Assembly (NCBI RefSeq): GCF_000519325.1
Contig: NZ_KI912613.1
Span: 1,946,090-2,005,122, forward strand
Reading direction: 5' to 3'
Length of the DNA: 59,033 bases
From: Patulibacter minatonensis DSM 18081
GTDB taxonomy: Bacteria > Actinomycetota > Thermoleophilia > Solirubrobacterales > Solirubrobacteraceae
The notes under the pieces are model-generated. The model did no database searches and was not told the DNA's origin. It worked only from the letters and a program-made list of their open reading frames with translations. Every line of letters begins with the position of its first letter. Within the stretch, counting starts at the first letter, position 1. This document shows, piece after piece, positions 3,954 to 9,575 of this stretch. The position numbers were made by a program, and so were the translations under genes.

Positions 3954-4937
3954 CTACGCCACTCGCCCGCGCCAGCGCACGCCGAGGCCCAGCGCCGTCG
4001 CGAGGGCGAGGAACGCCGCGAGCGCGAAGATCCAGGTGATCTCCCGCTGCTCGGCCTCGGTCGCCACGCGGGTCCCGAGGCTCTTGTAGATCTCCTCCAG
4101 CTGGCCCGCATCGCCCACGCTGAACGACTCGCCGCCGGAGGTCTGGGCGATCTGCTGCATCAGCTGGGGGTCCGGCGGCACCGGCTGGAAACCCCCCTGC
4201 CCGTCGGGGACGACCCCGTCCGGGGTGCCGAGGGACACCGTGTAGATCGGCACCCGTTGCGCCTTGGCCGTCGTCGCCACGGCGAGCGGGTCCTCGTCGC
4301 CCGGGGACGGCTTGCCGTCGGACAGCAGGATGATCGCTCCCGGCGGACGGACCCCGTCGTTCTTCGCCGGGTCGCCCTCGGCCCGGACCGCGTCGAGGGC
4401 GACCGCCAGCGCCGACCCGGTGAACGTGCTGCCGCCAGGGACCAGCGCGTCGACCTGCCGGTTCACGACTCCGCGGTCCGTGGTCGGCTCCTGCACGATG
4501 CTCGGGGTCTCGGCGTACCCCACGAGCCCGACCCGGGTCTGCTTCGGAACGCCCTTCAGGAAGCGCCTGGCCGCGTTCTGGACGGCCTCCATGCGCGTGG
4601 GCTGCACGTCCTCCGAGCCCATCGACCCGGACGAGTCGATCACGAGCTCGACCGTCGACCGCGACTCCGGCGACGTCTTCGTCACCTCCGGCCGCGTCAG
4701 GCCGACCGACATCAGGGCGAGCGCCAGCGCCAGCAGGGCGATCGGGATCCAGCGGCGGTGCGACGGCTGCGCCGCGACGACGGCCTTCAGCGTCGCCGTC
4801 GCCGGCATGCGGATCGCGTTCCTGCGTCGCCGTGCCCGCGACGCGTGGATCGCGTAGAGGCCCGCCGGGATCAGCAGCAGGGTGACGAGGAACAGCGGCG
4901 CGTCGAGCGCGATCGCCAGGGGCGGGCCGACGCTCAT
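3954..4937 (-). CDS. Von Willebrand factor A domain membrane protein (BatA-like)
   Basis: A 327-residue protein with N-terminal membrane helices at about 8-28 and 63-80 and a C-terminal helix at about 303-320. The VWA domain between them carries a complete MIDAS start, DSSGS at 101-105, plus the later Thr and LLSDGKP segments. BatA/BatB-type proteins display a metal-dependent adhesion module at the membrane and work with MoxR ATPases in complex assembly or envelope stress. Its ATG overlaps the stop of the upstream DUF58 gene by 4 bp, so the two are translationally coupled. It is the last gene of the MoxR-DUF58-VWA operon. Confidence 0.9.
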   Translation of the reverse strand: MSVGPPLAIALDAPLFLVTLLLIPAGLYAIHASRARRRRNAIRMPATATLKAVVAAQPSHRRWIPIALLALALALMSVGLTRPEVTKTSPESRSTVELVIDSSGSMGSEDVQPTRMEAVQNAARRFLKGVPKQTRVGLVGYAETPSIVQEPTTDRGVVNRQVDALVPGGSTFTGSALAVALDAVRAEGDPAKNDGVRPPGAIILLSDGKPSPGDEDPLAVATTAKAQRVPIYTVSLGTPDGVVPDGQGGFQPVPPDPQLMQQIAQTSGGESFSVGDAGQLEEIYKSLGTRVATEAEQREITWIFALAAFLALATALGLGVRWRGRVA

Positions 4938-5845
4938 CGCAGCGCCCGTCCCAGGTCGCGGAGCCAGTCGCCTTCCGTGCTGACCTGCAGGTGCTGGACG
5001 CGGCTGCGGCGCAGCCGCTCGGCGACGTCGGCGCGGCGCTCGGCCTCGGCGGCCGCGAACGCGTCGCGGACGCGGGCCGACGACGTGTCGACCTCGACGT
5101 GGTCGCCGTTCTCCGGGTCGACGACGACGACGATCCCGGCGTCCGGCAGCGCGTGCTCGCGCGGGTCGGAGACCTCGGCGACGAGCACCCGGTGCTGCCG
5201 GGCCAGCAGCGACAGCGGGCGGTGCCACCGGGAGTCGTCGCGCAGGTCCGACGCCACGACGATCAGGCCCGGGCGCCGGGCGACGCGGTGCAGGCGCTCG
5301 AGCGCGTCGGCGAACGACTCGGTGCGGATCGAGCGGTCGGCGGCGACGCCCTCGGCCAGCGCCCGGTCGATGCCGCCCAGCGCGGCGCGCCCGCCCTTCG
5401 GCGGCAGGACGCGGGTGGCCGACGTCGTGGCACCCCAGCGCAGCAGGGCGACGCGGCCGCCGCGACGGACGCCCAGTCGCGAGACGACGCGCACCACGCC
5501 CTCGGCGACGTCGGACTTCAGACGCCGCGTGGTCCCGAACGCCATCGAGGCGGAGACGTCGAGCGCGACCCACGTCGTCAGCGTGCGCTCGGGGACGTGG
5601 AGCCGCACGTGCGGCTCGCCGGTCCGGGCGCTCGCCGCCGGATCGAGGTGGCGGACGTCGTCGCCCTCCACGTACGGCCGGAGCTGGCTCAGCTCGGTGC
5701 CCGACCCGAGGCCGGCGGAGCGGTGCTCGCCCGGCAGGACGCCCGCGCTGCGCTTCGTGATCGCGAGCTCGAGCGCACGGACGGCGTGCCCGCCGATCTG
5801 GCCGGGACCCTGCCGGCCGGGCGGGTCGATGAGGAGGTCGCTCAC
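4934..5845 (-). CDS. DUF58 domain protein
   Basis: A 303-residue soluble protein. The DUF58 signature RPYVEGDDVRHLDPAASAR lies at about 56-74, and a VWA-like strand with LDVSASM follows at about 94. DUF58 proteins are standard partners of MoxR ATPases. It lies 7 bp after the MoxR gene and overlaps the next VWA gene by 4 bp, so the three form one operon. The specific client complex is unknown. Confidence 0.92.
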   Translation of the reverse strand: MSDLLIDPPGRQGPGQIGGHAVRALELAITKRSAGVLPGEHRSAGLGSGTELSQLRPYVEGDDVRHLDPAASARTGEPHVRLHVPERTLTTWVALDVSASMAFGTTRRLKSDVAEGVVRVVSRLGVRRGGRVALLRWGATTSATRVLPPKGGRAALGGIDRALAEGVAADRSIRTESFADALERLHRVARRPGLIVVASDLRDDSRWHRPLSLLARQHRVLVAEVSDPREHALPDAGIVVVVDPENGDHVEVDTSSARVRDAFAAAEAERRADVAERLRRSRVQHLQVSTEGDWLRDLGRALR

Positions 5846-5852
5846 GGGCGGC

Positions 5853-6989
5853 TCAGGACGACTCGGCGGCCCGGCGGCCGTTGTGGCGCTCCGGCGGGGC
5901 CGCCTGCGCCTGCTGCGGCTCGCTCCAGCGGCCGTCCCCGGGGCCGGGGGCGCGGCTCTCGATCAGCGGCGGGGCCTCGCCCCCGTTGGGGTCCACGGCG
6001 CGCAGCACGCGGTCGAGGACGTCGTCGGGCGTCAGGCCGTCGGCGTGCGCCTCGTACGACAGGATCAGGCGGTGGCGGAGGACGTCGAGCGCGAGGGCGC
6101 GCACGTCGCGGGTCGTCACGTAGTCGCGGCCGCGGAGCACCGCGAGGGCCTGCGCGGCCTGGACGAGCCCGATCGGCCCGCGGGGGCTGGCGCCGACGTC
6201 GATCGCGCCGCGGAGCTCGCCGATGCCGTAGCGATCGGGGTGCCGGGTCGCGTCGGCCAGTGCGACGGCGAAGCGCACGACCTGCGGGTCGACGTGGGCG
6301 CTGCGCACGGTCTCGCGGTGACGGAGGAGCTTCTCGGGGGTGATGACCTGCCGGACGTCCTCGGCGGCACCGACCGACGCGTGGACGACGGAGGCCTCGT
6401 CCTCGATCGTCGGGTAGCCGACGACGACCTTCAGGAGGAAGCGGTCGACCTGGGCCTCCGGCAGCGGATAGGTGCCCTCGGACTCGATCGGGTTCTGCGT
6501 CGCGAGCACCAGGAACGGGCTGGGCAGCGGGAACGTGTCGCCGCCGAGGGTGACCTGACGCTCCTGCATGACCTCGAGCAGCGCCGACTGCACCTTGGCG
6601 GGGGCGCGGTTGATCTCGTCCGCGAGCAGCAGGTTGCCGAAGACCGGACCGAGCTGGGTCTCGAACGTGCCGGTGTCGGGGCGCCAGATCCGGGTGCCGA
6701 CGAGGTCGGCCGGCACGAGGTCGGGGGTGAACTGCACGCGGCGGAACTCGCCGCCGAGGACCGTGGAGAGCGTCTTCACCGTCAGCGTCTTCGCCAGGCC
6801 CGGGACGCCCTCGAGGAGGACGTGGCCGCCGGACAGGAGCGCGACGAGCACGCGCTCGAGCATCGCGTCCTGGCCGATGACGACCCGCTTGACCTCGTGG
6901 AGGACGGCCTCGAGGTCGCGCGCGGCCTCGTCGATCGGCGACGCCGCGGTCTGCTGCTGAGGGTCGGTCGGGGGGATCGGCGTGCTCAC
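5853..6989 (-). CDS. MoxR-family AAA+ ATPase
   Basis: A 378-residue AAA+ ATPase. Walker A is GVPGLAKT at 61-68, Walker B is LLADEINRAP at about 121-130, and the sensor segment ATQNPIESEG lies near 160; a helical lid follows. MoxR ATPases act as chaperones that load metals or assemble complexes together with VWA proteins, which fits the DUF58 and VWA genes directly downstream. The GTG at 6989 was chosen because a GGAG-like ribosome site precedes it and the upstream frame is low-complexity intergenic DNA. The C-terminal 45 residues are a variable polar tail. Confidence 0.93.
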   Translation of the reverse strand: MSTPIPPTDPQQQTAASPIDEAARDLEAVLHEVKRVVIGQDAMLERVLVALLSGGHVLLEGVPGLAKTLTVKTLSTVLGGEFRRVQFTPDLVPADLVGTRIWRPDTGTFETQLGPVFGNLLLADEINRAPAKVQSALLEVMQERQVTLGGDTFPLPSPFLVLATQNPIESEGTYPLPEAQVDRFLLKVVVGYPTIEDEASVVHASVGAAEDVRQVITPEKLLRHRETVRSAHVDPQVVRFAVALADATRHPDRYGIGELRGAIDVGASPRGPIGLVQAAQALAVLRGRDYVTTRDVRALALDVLRHRLILSYEAHADGLTPDDVLDRVLRAVDPNGGEAPPLIESRAPGPGDGRWSEPQQAQAAPPERHNGRRAAESS

Positions 6990-7475
6990 GGGTGTGGTCT
7001 CCGGCGGTACGGGCGGAACGTCAGGGACCACGGTAGGTCGTCGGTCGTCACCTGGGGATAAGGAGCTCCCGGTGGTGCGGACCGGCGACCGGTGGCCGAC
7101 GGTGGCGGCGGTCGGGAGGGCGGGGCCCTCCTTCGTGCGTACGCTCCTTCCTACCCGATGGACGCGCCCGGCGTGCCGGGTCCCGGGCGGACCGCCCCGA
7201 TCGGTCCCGATCACCGGACCGGGAACGGCGGAGGTCGTCGCCGGTCGGGCGCCGACCACGATCGACCGCGCCCCTCGACCCCCGGCCGGCACGGCGTCGC
7301 TCGTGGTCGTGGGCCCCACGGGTGTCCCCGCCGTCCGAGCCGGGACCGGACCCGGACGACGGGCGGTCGCTCCCGGTCGGATACCGACCATCCGTGACCC
7401 CCGGACCTGTGCCGGACCCCGACCCGACCCGAACCGGCCGGCCCCACCCCCGACCAGGCGCCGGGTCCAGGGCGC
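6990..7475. other. 486-bp intergenic region with palindromic repeat; no gene seen
   Basis: No frame here shows protein-like composition. The stretch separates the MoxR operon promoter from the stop of the TetR-PP2C gene, both minus strand. It contains a 26-bp palindromic element at 7375-7400 that recurs about 17 kb away. Confidence 0.6.
7375..7400 (-). repeat. Dispersed palindromic repeat, solitary copy
   Basis: GGTCGG-ATA-CCGACC followed by ATCCGTGACCC. Its reverse complement is identical over 26 bp to the junction of two units in the 61-bp tandem array at 24269-24484. The 6-bp arms could form a small hairpin, or each could bind a dimeric protein. Confidence 0.75.
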
Positions 7476-8972
7476 TCAGTCCGACGCCCGGGTGGCGTCG
7501 ACGCCGGTGGGGGAGAGGACGACGAGGGTCGCGTCGTCGGTCAGCGGCTCGCCGGACGCGCCGAGGACGGCCTCCTCGATCGCGTTGACCGTGTTGGCGG
7601 CGGTCGGGTTGGGGGCCGTCCGGGCCGCGGCGACGATCCCCGCGACGCCGAAGGTCGAGCCGTCGGCGCGCACGCGATCACGGATGCCGTCGGAGTAGAT
7701 GATCACGCGGTCGTCCGGCTCGAGCCGGCGGCGGTTGACGGGCGGTCCGGAGCCGTCGGCGTCCTGCGGGCCGACGACGCCCATGATCTCGCCGACGGCG
7801 CCCTCCAGCTCCTCCACGCGGCCGTCGGCGGTGATCAGCAGCGGTGCGGGATGCGCGCGATTGATCCAGGTGAACTCCGACGCCAGGGCGTCCCACCGGG
7901 CGATCACCGCGGTCGCGACGGCGCCGTCGATCGTGAGGTCGGTCAGCGTGCGGTCCATCAGCCCGACGGTCTCCGGCAGGTCGCGGGCGTTGCGGCGTCC
8001 GGCGCGGAACGCCCCGAGCAGCACGGCCGCGAGCCCCGCGGCGCGCGGGCCGGTGCCCTCGCAGTCGGCCAGGCCGATCCAGGCGCCGTCGGAGTTCTCG
8101 GCGTAGTCGAACCAGTCGCCCCCGACGTCGTAGGAGGGCAGGACGTTGCCGGCCAGCCCGGCCCCGCCGATGCGGGCGACGCGGGGCGGCAGCAGGTTCT
8201 GCTGCATCTCCGACGCGGGCGAGATCCGCTGCCTGCGTGCCGCCTGCGCGTACACGTCGGTGTAGGGGCCGCCCAGTCCGAGGGCGGCGGCACCCTGGCG
8301 GGCGAGCTCCTGCAGGGCGTCCTCGCGCGCACCGACGGCGATCAGCGCGCCCGTCGCGCGGCCGCGCAGGTACATCGGGACGACGGCGGCGCCGGGCATC
8401 TGCTCTCCGACGACGTGCCGCAGGCTCGCGATCGCGCTGCGCGGCAGCTCGGGACCGACGCCGAGGGACACCGGCAGCTCGGCCGGGAACTCGGCGGGTC
8501 CGTGCAGGCGCAGGAGCCGCGAGCCGTCGATGTCGACGACGTAGAGCGCGACCGAGGCGACGCCGCCCAGCCGCTGGGCCTCCGCGACGATCTGCTCGCC
8601 GAGCAGGTGGGGTGGGACCTTGTTCAGCACGTCCGCGACGTCGAGCACCGCGGGGGTCGTGCTGCCGAGCTCGCCGGCCGGACGCAGGACGTCGCGCTCG
8701 TTGGCCTCGGCGTCGTCGCGTGCCTGCTGCGCGGCGGCGGCGACGAGGTCGCTGCGGCGCGGGAAGTGGCGGTAGGCGGTGGCGCGTCCGACCCGGGCCT
8801 CGGCGGCGATCCGCTCCATCCCGGCGTCGGGCTGCTCGCGCAGGATCCGCATCGCCGCGGTGACGAGCCGCGTGTAGTTCAGCGCCGCGTCGCTGCGCTG
8901 CTTGCGCGCCCGCACCGATCCCGTGCGCTCCTGCGTGACGGGCTCGGGCGGCGGGTGGGGCTGGGCGGACAC
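7476..8972 (-). CDS. TetR-type HTH fused to GAF-like and SpoIIE/PP2C phosphatase domains
   Basis: A 498-residue protein with an unusual architecture. Residues 30-75 are a TetR N-terminal DNA-binding domain (MERIAAEARVGRATAYRHFP). Residues about 125-245 look like a GAF-type sensor (VALYVVDIDGSRLLRL, later TGALIAVG). Residues about 258-495 are a SpoIIE-type PP2C phosphatase: an SPASEMQQNLLPP entry helix, YDVGGDWFDY near 281-290, LADCEGTGPRAAG, IIYSDGIRDRV and LTDDATLVVL. The metal-binding Asp residues appear to be kept. The usual TetR ligand-binding helices are missing. SpoIIE-family phosphatases dephosphorylate Ser/Thr proteins such as anti-sigma antagonists. The GTG at 8972 follows an AGGAG site. 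The gene is divergent from a DUF2294 gene, with palindromic sites between them. Confidence 0.88.
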   Translation of the reverse strand: MSAQPHPPPEPVTQERTGSVRARKQRSDAALNYTRLVTAAMRILREQPDAGMERIAAEARVGRATAYRHFPRRSDLVAAAAQQARDDAEANERDVLRPAGELGSTTPAVLDVADVLNKVPPHLLGEQIVAEAQRLGGVASVALYVVDIDGSRLLRLHGPAEFPAELPVSLGVGPELPRSAIASLRHVVGEQMPGAAVVPMYLRGRATGALIAVGAREDALQELARQGAAALGLGGPYTDVYAQAARRQRISPASEMQQNLLPPRVARIGGAGLAGNVLPSYDVGGDWFDYAENSDGAWIGLADCEGTGPRAAGLAAVLLGAFRAGRRNARDLPETVGLMDRTLTDLTIDGAVATAVIARWDALASEFTWINRAHPAPLLITADGRVEELEGAVGEIMGVVGPQDADGSGPPVNRRRLEPDDRVIIYSDGIRDRVRADGSTFGVAGIVAAARTAPNPTAANTVNAIEEAVLGASGEPLTDDATLVVLSPTGVDATRASD

Positions 8973-9007
8973 GGTGGTGCTCCTGGTCGCTCGTGGACGC
9001 CGTCCGG

Positions 9008-9019
9008 CTCGGTACCGAG
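9008..9019. promoter_or_regulatory. 12-bp perfect palindrome, candidate TetR-type operator
   Basis: CTCGGTACCGAG is a perfect palindrome 36 bp upstream of the TetR-GAF-PP2C start. It shares the string CCGAGACAG with the second candidate site at 9127-9149 in the same divergent intergenic region. Confidence 0.5.
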
Positions 9020-9126
9020 ACAGCTCGTCCCAGAAGCGCGCCCAAAGCCTATCGGTCGGGCTTCTCGGCGGTGACGATCGGGATGGTGGGGCTAATCTGA
9101 GACACCAAGGACGGCGTACCCCGAGG

Positions 9127-9149
9127 AACCGAGACAGAACGTATCGGTT
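9127..9149. promoter_or_regulatory. AACCGA-N11-TCGGTT inverted repeat, candidate operator
   Basis: Perfect 6-bp arms are separated by 11 bp, 34 bp before the DUF2294 ATG. The left arm continues as CCGAGACAG, matching the site at 9008-9023. A pair of such sites between a TetR-type regulator and its divergent neighbour suggests autoregulation and co-regulation. Confidence 0.5.
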
Positions 9150-9182: not shown

Positions 9183-9575
9183 ATGACGCAGCTCGAATCC
9201 CCGAATCCCGGGCAATCGCCCGCGCGCAGCCCGTTGCAGTCGATCGCGGACGCCGTGGCCCGGCACTACAAGGACCAGTTCGGTCGCGGCCCCCACCGGT
9301 GTCGCGCGCACTTCGCAGGACGCGACTCGGTCCTCGTCGTCCTCGAGGGGACGATGTCCCCGGCGGAGCGCCGCCTCGCCGAGCTGGGCGAGATCGACCG
9401 CGTCCGCGGCGCCCGGGCCGCCCTCCAGAGCGCGGTGCAGGACGACCTCCTCGACGCGGTCCGGGCCGTCGCGGGGCGCGGGGTCGAGTTCGCGGTCCCG
9501 GGCATGGACCTCGTGCGGGACGTCGCCACCGAGCTGTTCGTCCTGACGCCCGTCGAGGGCGTCGAGCGCGACTGA
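9183..9575 (+). CDS. DUF2294 domain protein
   Basis: A 130-residue soluble protein. The DUF2294 core begins at about residue 28 (ARHYKDQFGRGPHRCRAHFAGRDSVLV is the family's opening strand-loop, in part) and continues with LEGTMSPAERRLAELGE and a C-terminal VRDVATELFVLTP. The function of the family is unknown. It is transcribed away from the TetR-GAF-PP2C gene across 210 bp holding two palindromes, so it is the best candidate target of that regulator. Confidence 0.85.
   Translation: MTQLESPNPGQSPARSPLQSIADAVARHYKDQFGRGPHRCRAHFAGRDSVLVVLEGTMSPAERRLAELGEIDRVRGARAALQSAVQDDLLDAVRAVAGRGVEFAVPGMDLVRDVATELFVLTPVEGVERD

What the first reader, a model, noticed from the sequence alone, without database searches (positions are those of the whole stretch)
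7476..8972. TetR DNA-binding domain fused to a GAF-like sensor and a SpoIIE/PP2C phosphatase
One chain joins a TetR HTH (about 30-75), a GAF-like module (about 125-245) and a PP2C SpoIIE domain (about 258-495) with apparently intact metal-binding Asp residues; the normal TetR ligand domain is absent. TetR proteins are one-component repressors and SpoIIE-type phosphatases act in partner-switching. A single protein doing both would link ligand sensing, promoter binding and protein dephosphorylation. It may be a new class of signal-transduction protein.
Basis: partly seen in the sequence, partly recalled or inferred. Interest (0 to 1): 0.78.

Follow-up and report, generated by a model that had tools for sequence, protein, structure and literature searches.

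The report
DNA-binding stress phosphatase in one protein
One protein of a soil actinobacterium (Patulibacter) joins a repressor-type DNA-binding head, a small sensor and a protein phosphatase; the same chain occurs across its bacterial class next to stress genes and behind conserved DNA-binding sites, so it probably couples gene repression with protein dephosphorylation, a combination I could not find described before.

Summary
Confirmed. The minus-strand ORF 7476-8972 (498 aa) is TetR_N (27.8 bits, cut-off 24), a GAF fold that Pfam misses but the model shows, and SpoIIE/PP2C (101 bits). It is no frameshift or join: 54 full-length homologues occur in 42 Thermoleophilia genomes. Of 31 aligned homologues all carry TetR_N (two with a PAS-type insertion or long insert), and the catalytic aspartates are kept (five invariant, one 29/31). 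The fusion looks single-origin; 18 HTH-less GAF-SpoIIE relatives fall outside it.

New evidence that the HTH works: two inverted repeats (GAC-N5-GTC core) in the divergent promoter region, conserved in Patulibacter and recurring before distant homologues. The genes sit beside stress genes (PRC-barrel/DUF2382, MpsC, DUF3618, holin, GlsB, STAS, SigB-type sigma). In the window's genome it is the only true SpoIIE phosphatase found.

Best reading: a GAF-controlled, autoregulating repressor that is also an RsbU-like stress phosphatase. Caveat: this genome has eight strong SigB/F/G-type sigma factors but no detectable RsbW kinase or RsbV-type STAS protein, so the substrate here is unknown and classical partner-switching unproven. 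No paper on this architecture was found. New variant of known kinds; DNA binding, catalysis and ligand need experiments.

The parts
7476..8972 (-). TetR-GAF-SpoIIE protein gene (498 aa, GTG start)
   Evidence: Pfam TetR_N and SpoIIE above cut-off; 54 full-length homologues in class search; RBS AGGAG at 8980-8984
8694..8900 (-). TetR-type helix-turn-helix domain, residues 25-93 (Pfam TetR_N 38-80 = 8733-8861)
   Evidence: HTH residues A56 A59 R63 T65 R68 H69 F70 invariant in all rows that reach them; purifying selection, dN 0.08-0.11 against dS 0.33-0.60
8262..8654 (-). GAF domain, residues 107-237
   Evidence: AlphaFold model and Foldseek/VIA matches to DevS GAF-B, KdpD GAF and phytochrome GAF domains
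8187..8324 (-). alpha-helical linker region, residues 217-262 (last GAF helix plus short helices leading into the phosphatase)
   Evidence: secondary structure of the models; comparable to the linker that activates RsbU (PMC12143880); inference
7506..8186 (-). SpoIIE-type PP2C (PPM) phosphatase domain, residues 263-489; aspartates D286, D289, D303, D428, D479, D480
9014..9034 (.). operator B, TCTGGGAC-N5-GTCTCGGT on the minus strand, in the leader of the TetR-GAF-SpoIIE gene
   Evidence: conserved in 5 Patulibacter upstream regions
9128..9148 (.). operator A, ACCGAGAC-N5-GTATCGGT, 35-55 bp before the divergent MpsC gene
   Evidence: conserved inverted repeat; best match to the operator in the 5.5-Mb genome
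9046..9051 (-). TAGGCT, possible -10 element just upstream of operator B (TAGGAT/TAGCAT in relatives)
   Evidence: alignment; the sigma-70 scan found no consensus promoter; weak
9183..9575 (+). divergent gene: MpsC/DUF2294-family protein, probable co-regulated neighbour
   Evidence: PF10057 51 bits; synteny with the TetR-GAF-SpoIIE gene kept in all Patulibacter loci of this orthologue

Best explanation
A two-output stress regulator in one chain. The protein works as a dimer. Its TetR-type HTH binds two GAC-N5-GTC inverted repeats in the shared promoter region and represses its own gene and the divergent stress/envelope gene (MpsC here, usually a PRC-barrel/DUF2382 gene elsewhere). Its GAF domain senses an unknown signal and passes it through a helical linker to the PP2C domain, which dephosphorylates a regulatory phosphoprotein: probably an RsbV-like STAS protein, freeing a SigB/F-type sigma factor, in lineages that have one; a still unidentified substrate in Patulibacter. 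Shown: domain architecture, conserved catalytic and HTH residues, conserved apparently single-origin fusion, conserved inverted repeats, stress-gene linkage. Inferred: DNA binding, repression, catalysis, dimerisation, signal relay, substrate.
For: Both domains pass curated cut-offs, keep their key residues across the family and are under purifying selection. Operators: two conserved inverted repeats in the Patulibacter intergenic region; a matrix built only from those sites finds sites before distant homologues (per-locus shuffle p values, combined by Fisher 3e-12); GAC-N5-GTC is present in 12 of 19 non-Patulibacter upstream regions against 65 of 547 background windows (binomial 2e-7). Context: 15 of 28 DUF2382 hits in 13 genomes lie within 2.5 kb of a TetR-GAF-SpoIIE gene, including all six in one genome and the only one in three genomes; MpsC divergent in the Patulibacter orthologues; a STAS antagonist next door in L014 (TIGR00377 over cut-off) and in Miltoncostaea oceani, where a GlsB-type stress protein gene is divergent; SigB/F/G-type sigma genes within 4.5 kb in L006, L010 and L128. 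It is the only true SpoIIE-type phosphatase detected in its genome. Linker-coupled activation has a tested precedent in RsbU and is proposed for GAF phosphatases (PMC12143880).
Against: No biochemical evidence. In the window's genome no convincing RsbW kinase (best PF13581 hit 36 bits; the frames read look like histidine-kinase ATPase domains) or RsbV-type STAS protein was found, whereas more distant relatives have RsbW hits of 70-95 bits, so the usual partner-switching targets are missing here. One Patulibacter homologue (P. americanus) has D428 changed to N. The sister group with eight aligned members does not share this operator (Fisher p 0.42). The linker between HTH and GAF (residues 89-106) is predicted disordered, so signal flow between them is unclear.
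Confidence: 0.55

Rival explanations
1. Mainly a transcription factor: in Patulibacter the PP2C domain serves as a sensor or dimerisation domain that gates DNA binding (or is a decaying relic), replacing the missing TetR ligand domain, and dephosphorylates nothing important.
For: No RsbW or RsbV partners in the genome; PP2C evolves faster than HTH and GAF within Patulibacter (dN 0.13-0.28 against 0.08-0.11 for the HTH); D428N in P. americanus; two well-placed inverted repeats.
Against: Five catalytic aspartates are invariant in 31/31 and D428 is kept in 29/31, including the window protein; the PP2C domain still evolves under constraint (dN/dS about 0.2-0.45); STAS and sigma genes sit next to homologues.
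Confidence: 0.22
2. Mainly a phosphatase: an RsbU-like GAF-PP2C enzyme in which the HTH no longer regulates genes and only helps dimerisation or positions the protein.
For: The nearest relatives are plain GAF-SpoIIE phosphatases without an HTH; NCBI annotates a homologue simply as SpoIIE family protein phosphatase.
Against: HTH residues are invariant and the domain is among the most constrained parts; conserved inverted repeats lie in the upstream regions; all 31 aligned members and the M. oceani homologue carry TetR_N.
Confidence: 0.15
3. Artefact: an assembly join or a frameshift that fuses two neighbouring genes.
For: None found.
Against: 54 full-length matches in 42 genomes, including complete chromosomes; one open frame with a good ribosome-binding site.
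Confidence: 0.01

Closest known systems
RsbU/RsbP/RsbZ/OsaC-type GAF- or PAS-PPM phosphatases of the general stress response (incl. M. tuberculosis Rv1364c)
   Same: SpoIIE-type PP2C domain at the C-terminus; sensor domain (GAF, in some members PAS-GAF) in front; helical linker; stress-gene and, in some relatives, STAS or SigB-type sigma neighbours
   Different: Has an N-terminal TetR DNA-binding domain and apparent operators; no RsbW/RsbV partners detectable in the window's genome
TetR-family one-component regulators (e.g. KstR, LfrR, Rv0078)
   Same: TetR_N HTH that superposes on DNA-bound KstR; divergent gene arrangement; inverted-repeat sites of about 19-21 bp
   Different: The helical ligand/dimerisation domain is replaced by GAF plus an intact PP2C enzyme domain
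GAF-SpoIIE phosphatases of other Actinomycetota (e.g. L050-L066) and of the same family (G005, L049)
   Same: Homologous GAF-PP2C core, about 400 aa; closest outgroup in the tree
   Different: No TetR domain in 18/18

Membership tests
TetR family (TetR_N DNA-binding domain) | N-terminal TetR_N HTH above the curated cut-off | tested here: met
   27.8 bits against 24; 29/31 aligned rows match, and the two whose aligned stretch began after the HTH carry TetR_N when read from their starts
TetR family (TetR_N DNA-binding domain) | all-helical C-terminal ligand-binding and dimerisation domain | tested here: not met
   Replaced by a GAF fold and PP2C in the model
TetR family (TetR_N DNA-binding domain) | palindromic operator near its own or a divergent promoter | tested here: met
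   Two conserved inverted repeats; recurrence before distant homologues. Binding itself not tested
SpoIIE/RsbU-type PPM phosphatases | PF07228 domain with metal-binding aspartates | tested here: met
   101 bits; D286, D289, D303, D479, D480 31/31 and D428 29/31; Z 26.3, rmsd 2.3 A, 220 residues to Rv1364c
SpoIIE/RsbU-type PPM phosphatases | N-terminal sensor joined by a helical linker | tested here: met
   GAF fold and helices 217-260 in the models
SpoIIE/RsbU-type PPM phosphatases | Mn2+/Mg2+-dependent phosphatase activity | not testable with these tools
   needs an assay
Partner-switching module (RsbU-RsbV-RsbW-sigma B/F) | STAS antagonist and RsbW kinase encoded in the same genome | tested here: not met
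   Window's genome: best PF13581 hit 36 bits, looking like a histidine-kinase ATPase domain; the only STAS hit above cut-off lies in a glutaminase-STAS-cNMP protein. Met in relatives: strong RsbW hits and adjacent STAS genes
Partner-switching module (RsbU-RsbV-RsbW-sigma B/F) | SigB/F/G-type sigma factor | tested here: met
   8 matches over 197 bits in the genome, four above cut-off

The most novel reading that the evidence does not exclude
A single protein is at once an operator-binding repressor and a catalytically active stress phosphatase, so promoter occupancy and protein dephosphorylation are set by the same GAF signal; and in Patulibacter the phosphatase has been rewired to a substrate outside the RsbV/RsbW system.
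Probability: 0.4. Interest if true: 0.8.

Novelty: new variant of a known kind. Interest (0 to 1): 0.62.

Why it matters
RsbU-type phosphatases act by protein-protein switching and TetR proteins by binding DNA. A conserved protein with both would put transcriptional feedback and post-translational control of a stress response into one allosteric machine, and would show how a GAF sensor can drive two outputs. The genomes also raise a testable question: what does the only SpoIIE-type phosphatase of this Patulibacter act on, when eight SigB-like sigma factors are present but no recognisable RsbW or RsbV?

Tried and rejected
Assembly or frameshift artefact: rejected. GAF by Pfam in the window protein: not found, settled by structure. 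A second SpoIIE phosphatase in the genome (2529569): it is a PP2C_2 plus ADP-ribosylglycohydrolase protein, with SpoIIE below cut-off when scanned as a protein. The genome's STAS hit at 4680610 is a glutaminase-STAS-cNMP protein, not RsbV. PF13581 hits in the genome look like histidine-kinase domains, not RsbW. Genome-wide operator search: 37 places at up to 3 mismatches against 10 for the reversed control pattern; apart from sites A and B they were not assigned to a regulon. A consensus scan of a looser pattern in the window is not enriched. De novo half-site counts in the distant group were not clearly above shuffles by themselves, so the operator claim rests on the Patulibacter alignment, the matrix scan and the GAC-N5-GTC count. 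Sigma-70 promoter scan: nothing. Foldseek on the whole model tests mostly the PP2C part, so the N-terminus was modelled apart. M. oceani upstream region: no clear inverted repeat by eye. Literature searches found no TetR-SpoIIE fusion described; the library holds open-licence papers only.

Full report
What is there. The minus-strand ORF 7476-8972 encodes 498 residues from a GTG with AGGAG seven bases upstream. Pfam gives TetR_N at 38-80 (27.8 bits, cut-off 24) and SpoIIE at 295-487 (101.3 bits). The middle has no Pfam hit, but AlphaFold (pLDDT 84, pTM 0.75; N-terminal model pLDDT 82) builds a GAF fold at about 107-237. Foldseek ranks DevS GAF-B first for it, with weak E-values, and VIA-align lists phytochrome GAF domains at Z 9-10. 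The HTH superposes on DNA-bound KstR (Z 11.6, rmsd 1.5 A over 69 residues) and the PP2C domain on Rv1364c (Z 26.3, rmsd 2.3 A over 220).

It is not an artefact. The genome is a single 5.52-Mb contig; the closest named relatives are Patulibacter. A profile search of 399 Thermoleophilia genomes gives 54 full-length matches in 42 genomes by my count of the table, including members of two families outside the window's order; a search of 396 genomes of the phylum at E 1e-40 gives only partial (C-terminal) matches outside the window's family. In a 31-row alignment every row has SpoIIE and 29 have TetR_N; the other two rows started after the HTH, and when read from their own starts they too carry TetR_N, as does a third such locus, L046, which has a PAS domain between HTH and GAF. 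Miltoncostaea oceani, of another order, has TetR_N at 41.8 bits and SpoIIE at 92. Eighteen HTH-less GAF-SpoIIE relatives have no TetR_N, and the TetR-bearing set is one side of a supported branch (95/96), as expected of a single fusion; since the set was picked by similarity, this is consistent with, not proof of, one origin.

Both ends look functional. HTH residues A56, A59, R63, T65, R68, H69 and F70 are identical in every row that reaches them; D286, D289, D303, D479 and D480 are identical in 31/31; D428 is N in two (one is P. americanus). Within Patulibacter the HTH has dN 0.08-0.11 against dS 0.33-0.60, GAF 0.04-0.15 against 0.39-0.69, and PP2C 0.13-0.28 against about 0.6.

Operators. The 210-bp divergent intergenic region carries two 21-bp inverted repeats, ACCGAGAC-N5-GTATCGGT (9128-9148) and TCTGGGAC-N5-GTCTCGGT (9014-9034, minus strand). 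Equivalent sites stand at matching places in four other Patulibacter loci, including fully symmetric versions such as ACCGATAC-N5-GTATCGGT and CCCGAGAC-N5-GTCTCGGG. A weight matrix from the Patulibacter sites only, scanned over upstream regions of 19 distant homologues, gives combined p about 3e-12, while the other eight-member clade gives 0.42. The core GAC-N5-GTC is present in 12 of 19 upstream regions against 65 of 547 background windows; homologues are related, so these p values are optimistic. In the 5.5-Mb genome site A is the best match to the ideal sequence. Operator B lies just downstream of a possible -10 (TAGGCT, 9046-9051), a repressor-like position; that promoter is a guess.

Gene context. 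In Patulibacter the divergent neighbour is an MpsC/DUF2294 gene, with conserved synteny on both sides. Elsewhere it is mostly a PRC-barrel/DUF2382 gene. In 13 genomes, 15 of 28 DUF2382 hits lie within 2.5 kb of a TetR-GAF-SpoIIE gene: all six in G181 flank its three copies, and the single hit in G182, G196 and G165 is next to one. Other neighbours are holin/DUF3618, a STAS antagonist (L014; M. oceani), a GlsB-type stress membrane protein, ferritin-like genes, and SigB/F/G-type sigma factors. In the window's genome five of ten MpsC genes lie within 2.2 kb of a SigB/F/G-type sigma gene. This is a stress-response neighbourhood by association.

The puzzle. The window's genome has eight SigB/F/G-type matches over 197 bits and only this SpoIIE-type phosphatase; the other PF07228 hit is a PP2C_2-ADP-ribosylglycohydrolase protein. 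No convincing RsbW (best 36 bits, histidine-kinase-like) or RsbV was found, while more distant relatives have RsbW hits of 70-95 bits. So the classical partner-switching substrate is not evident in this organism, unless its partners are too divergent for these models. Absence in a 95.5%-complete genome by single family models is not proof.

Mechanism. The best reading is a GAF-gated dual-output regulator: dimeric HTH repression of its own and the divergent gene, plus RsbU-like dephosphorylation relayed through the helical linker, by analogy with the linker mechanism shown for RsbU and proposed for GAF phosphatases (PMC12143880). Architecture, residue conservation, inverted repeats and linkage are shown; binding, repression, catalysis, ligand and substrate are inferred. 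The main rival is a transcription factor whose PP2C domain is only a regulatory domain in Patulibacter.

Relation to the known. It is TetR-like in DNA-binding domain and operator layout but lacks the defining TetR ligand domain; it is RsbU/SpoIIE-like in its enzyme and sensor but has an added DNA-binding domain. It may work like both and is best filed as a new variant of the GAF-PPM stress phosphatases. NCBI calls the M. oceani homologue simply SpoIIE family protein phosphatase, and searches of open-licence papers found no description of the fusion.

Noticed in passing
whole genome G000: Eight strong SigB/F/G-type sigma factors but no convincing RsbW kinase or RsbV antagonist; P. americanus (G069) likewise has no PF13581 hit at E 1e-8, unlike more distant relatives.
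   Followed up: partly
G000 MpsC/DUF2294 genes, e.g. C1:5084424-5084675 and C1:4571398-4572171: Ten MpsC-family genes; five lie within 2.2 kb of a SigB/F/G-type sigma gene, suggesting a link to the stress response.
   Followed up: partly
window 9093-9105 (minus strand GTGTCTCAGATTA): A third TGTCTCA element followed by TTTA/ATTA is conserved between the two operators in all Patulibacter upstream regions; a half-site or promoter element.
   Followed up: no
L039 and L046: TetR-PAS-GAF-SpoIIE variants: a PAS-type domain is inserted between the HTH and the GAF domain (PAS below cut-off in L039).
   Followed up: partly
L036-L038, L041-L045 upstream regions: A sister clade of TetR-GAF-SpoIIE proteins lacks the GAC-N5-GTC operator and shows many GGGACA half-sites instead; its operator is unsolved.
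   Followed up: no
L125 (G138:C2:339006-342731): A TetR-GAF-SpoIIE gene stands head to head with a second GAF-SpoIIE paralogue (41% identity).
   Followed up: no
L117:466-3204 (G000:C1 about 2528465-2531203): 912-aa protein joining a PP2C-type phosphatase domain with an ADP-ribosylglycohydrolase domain.
   Followed up: partly
window 3954-7391, minus strand: A MoxR-type ATPase gene and the DUF58-type and VWA-type ORFs after it follow downstream of the gene in the same orientation, with synteny kept in Patulibacter; the DUF58 and VWA names are from reading the sequence, not from a family search.
   Followed up: no
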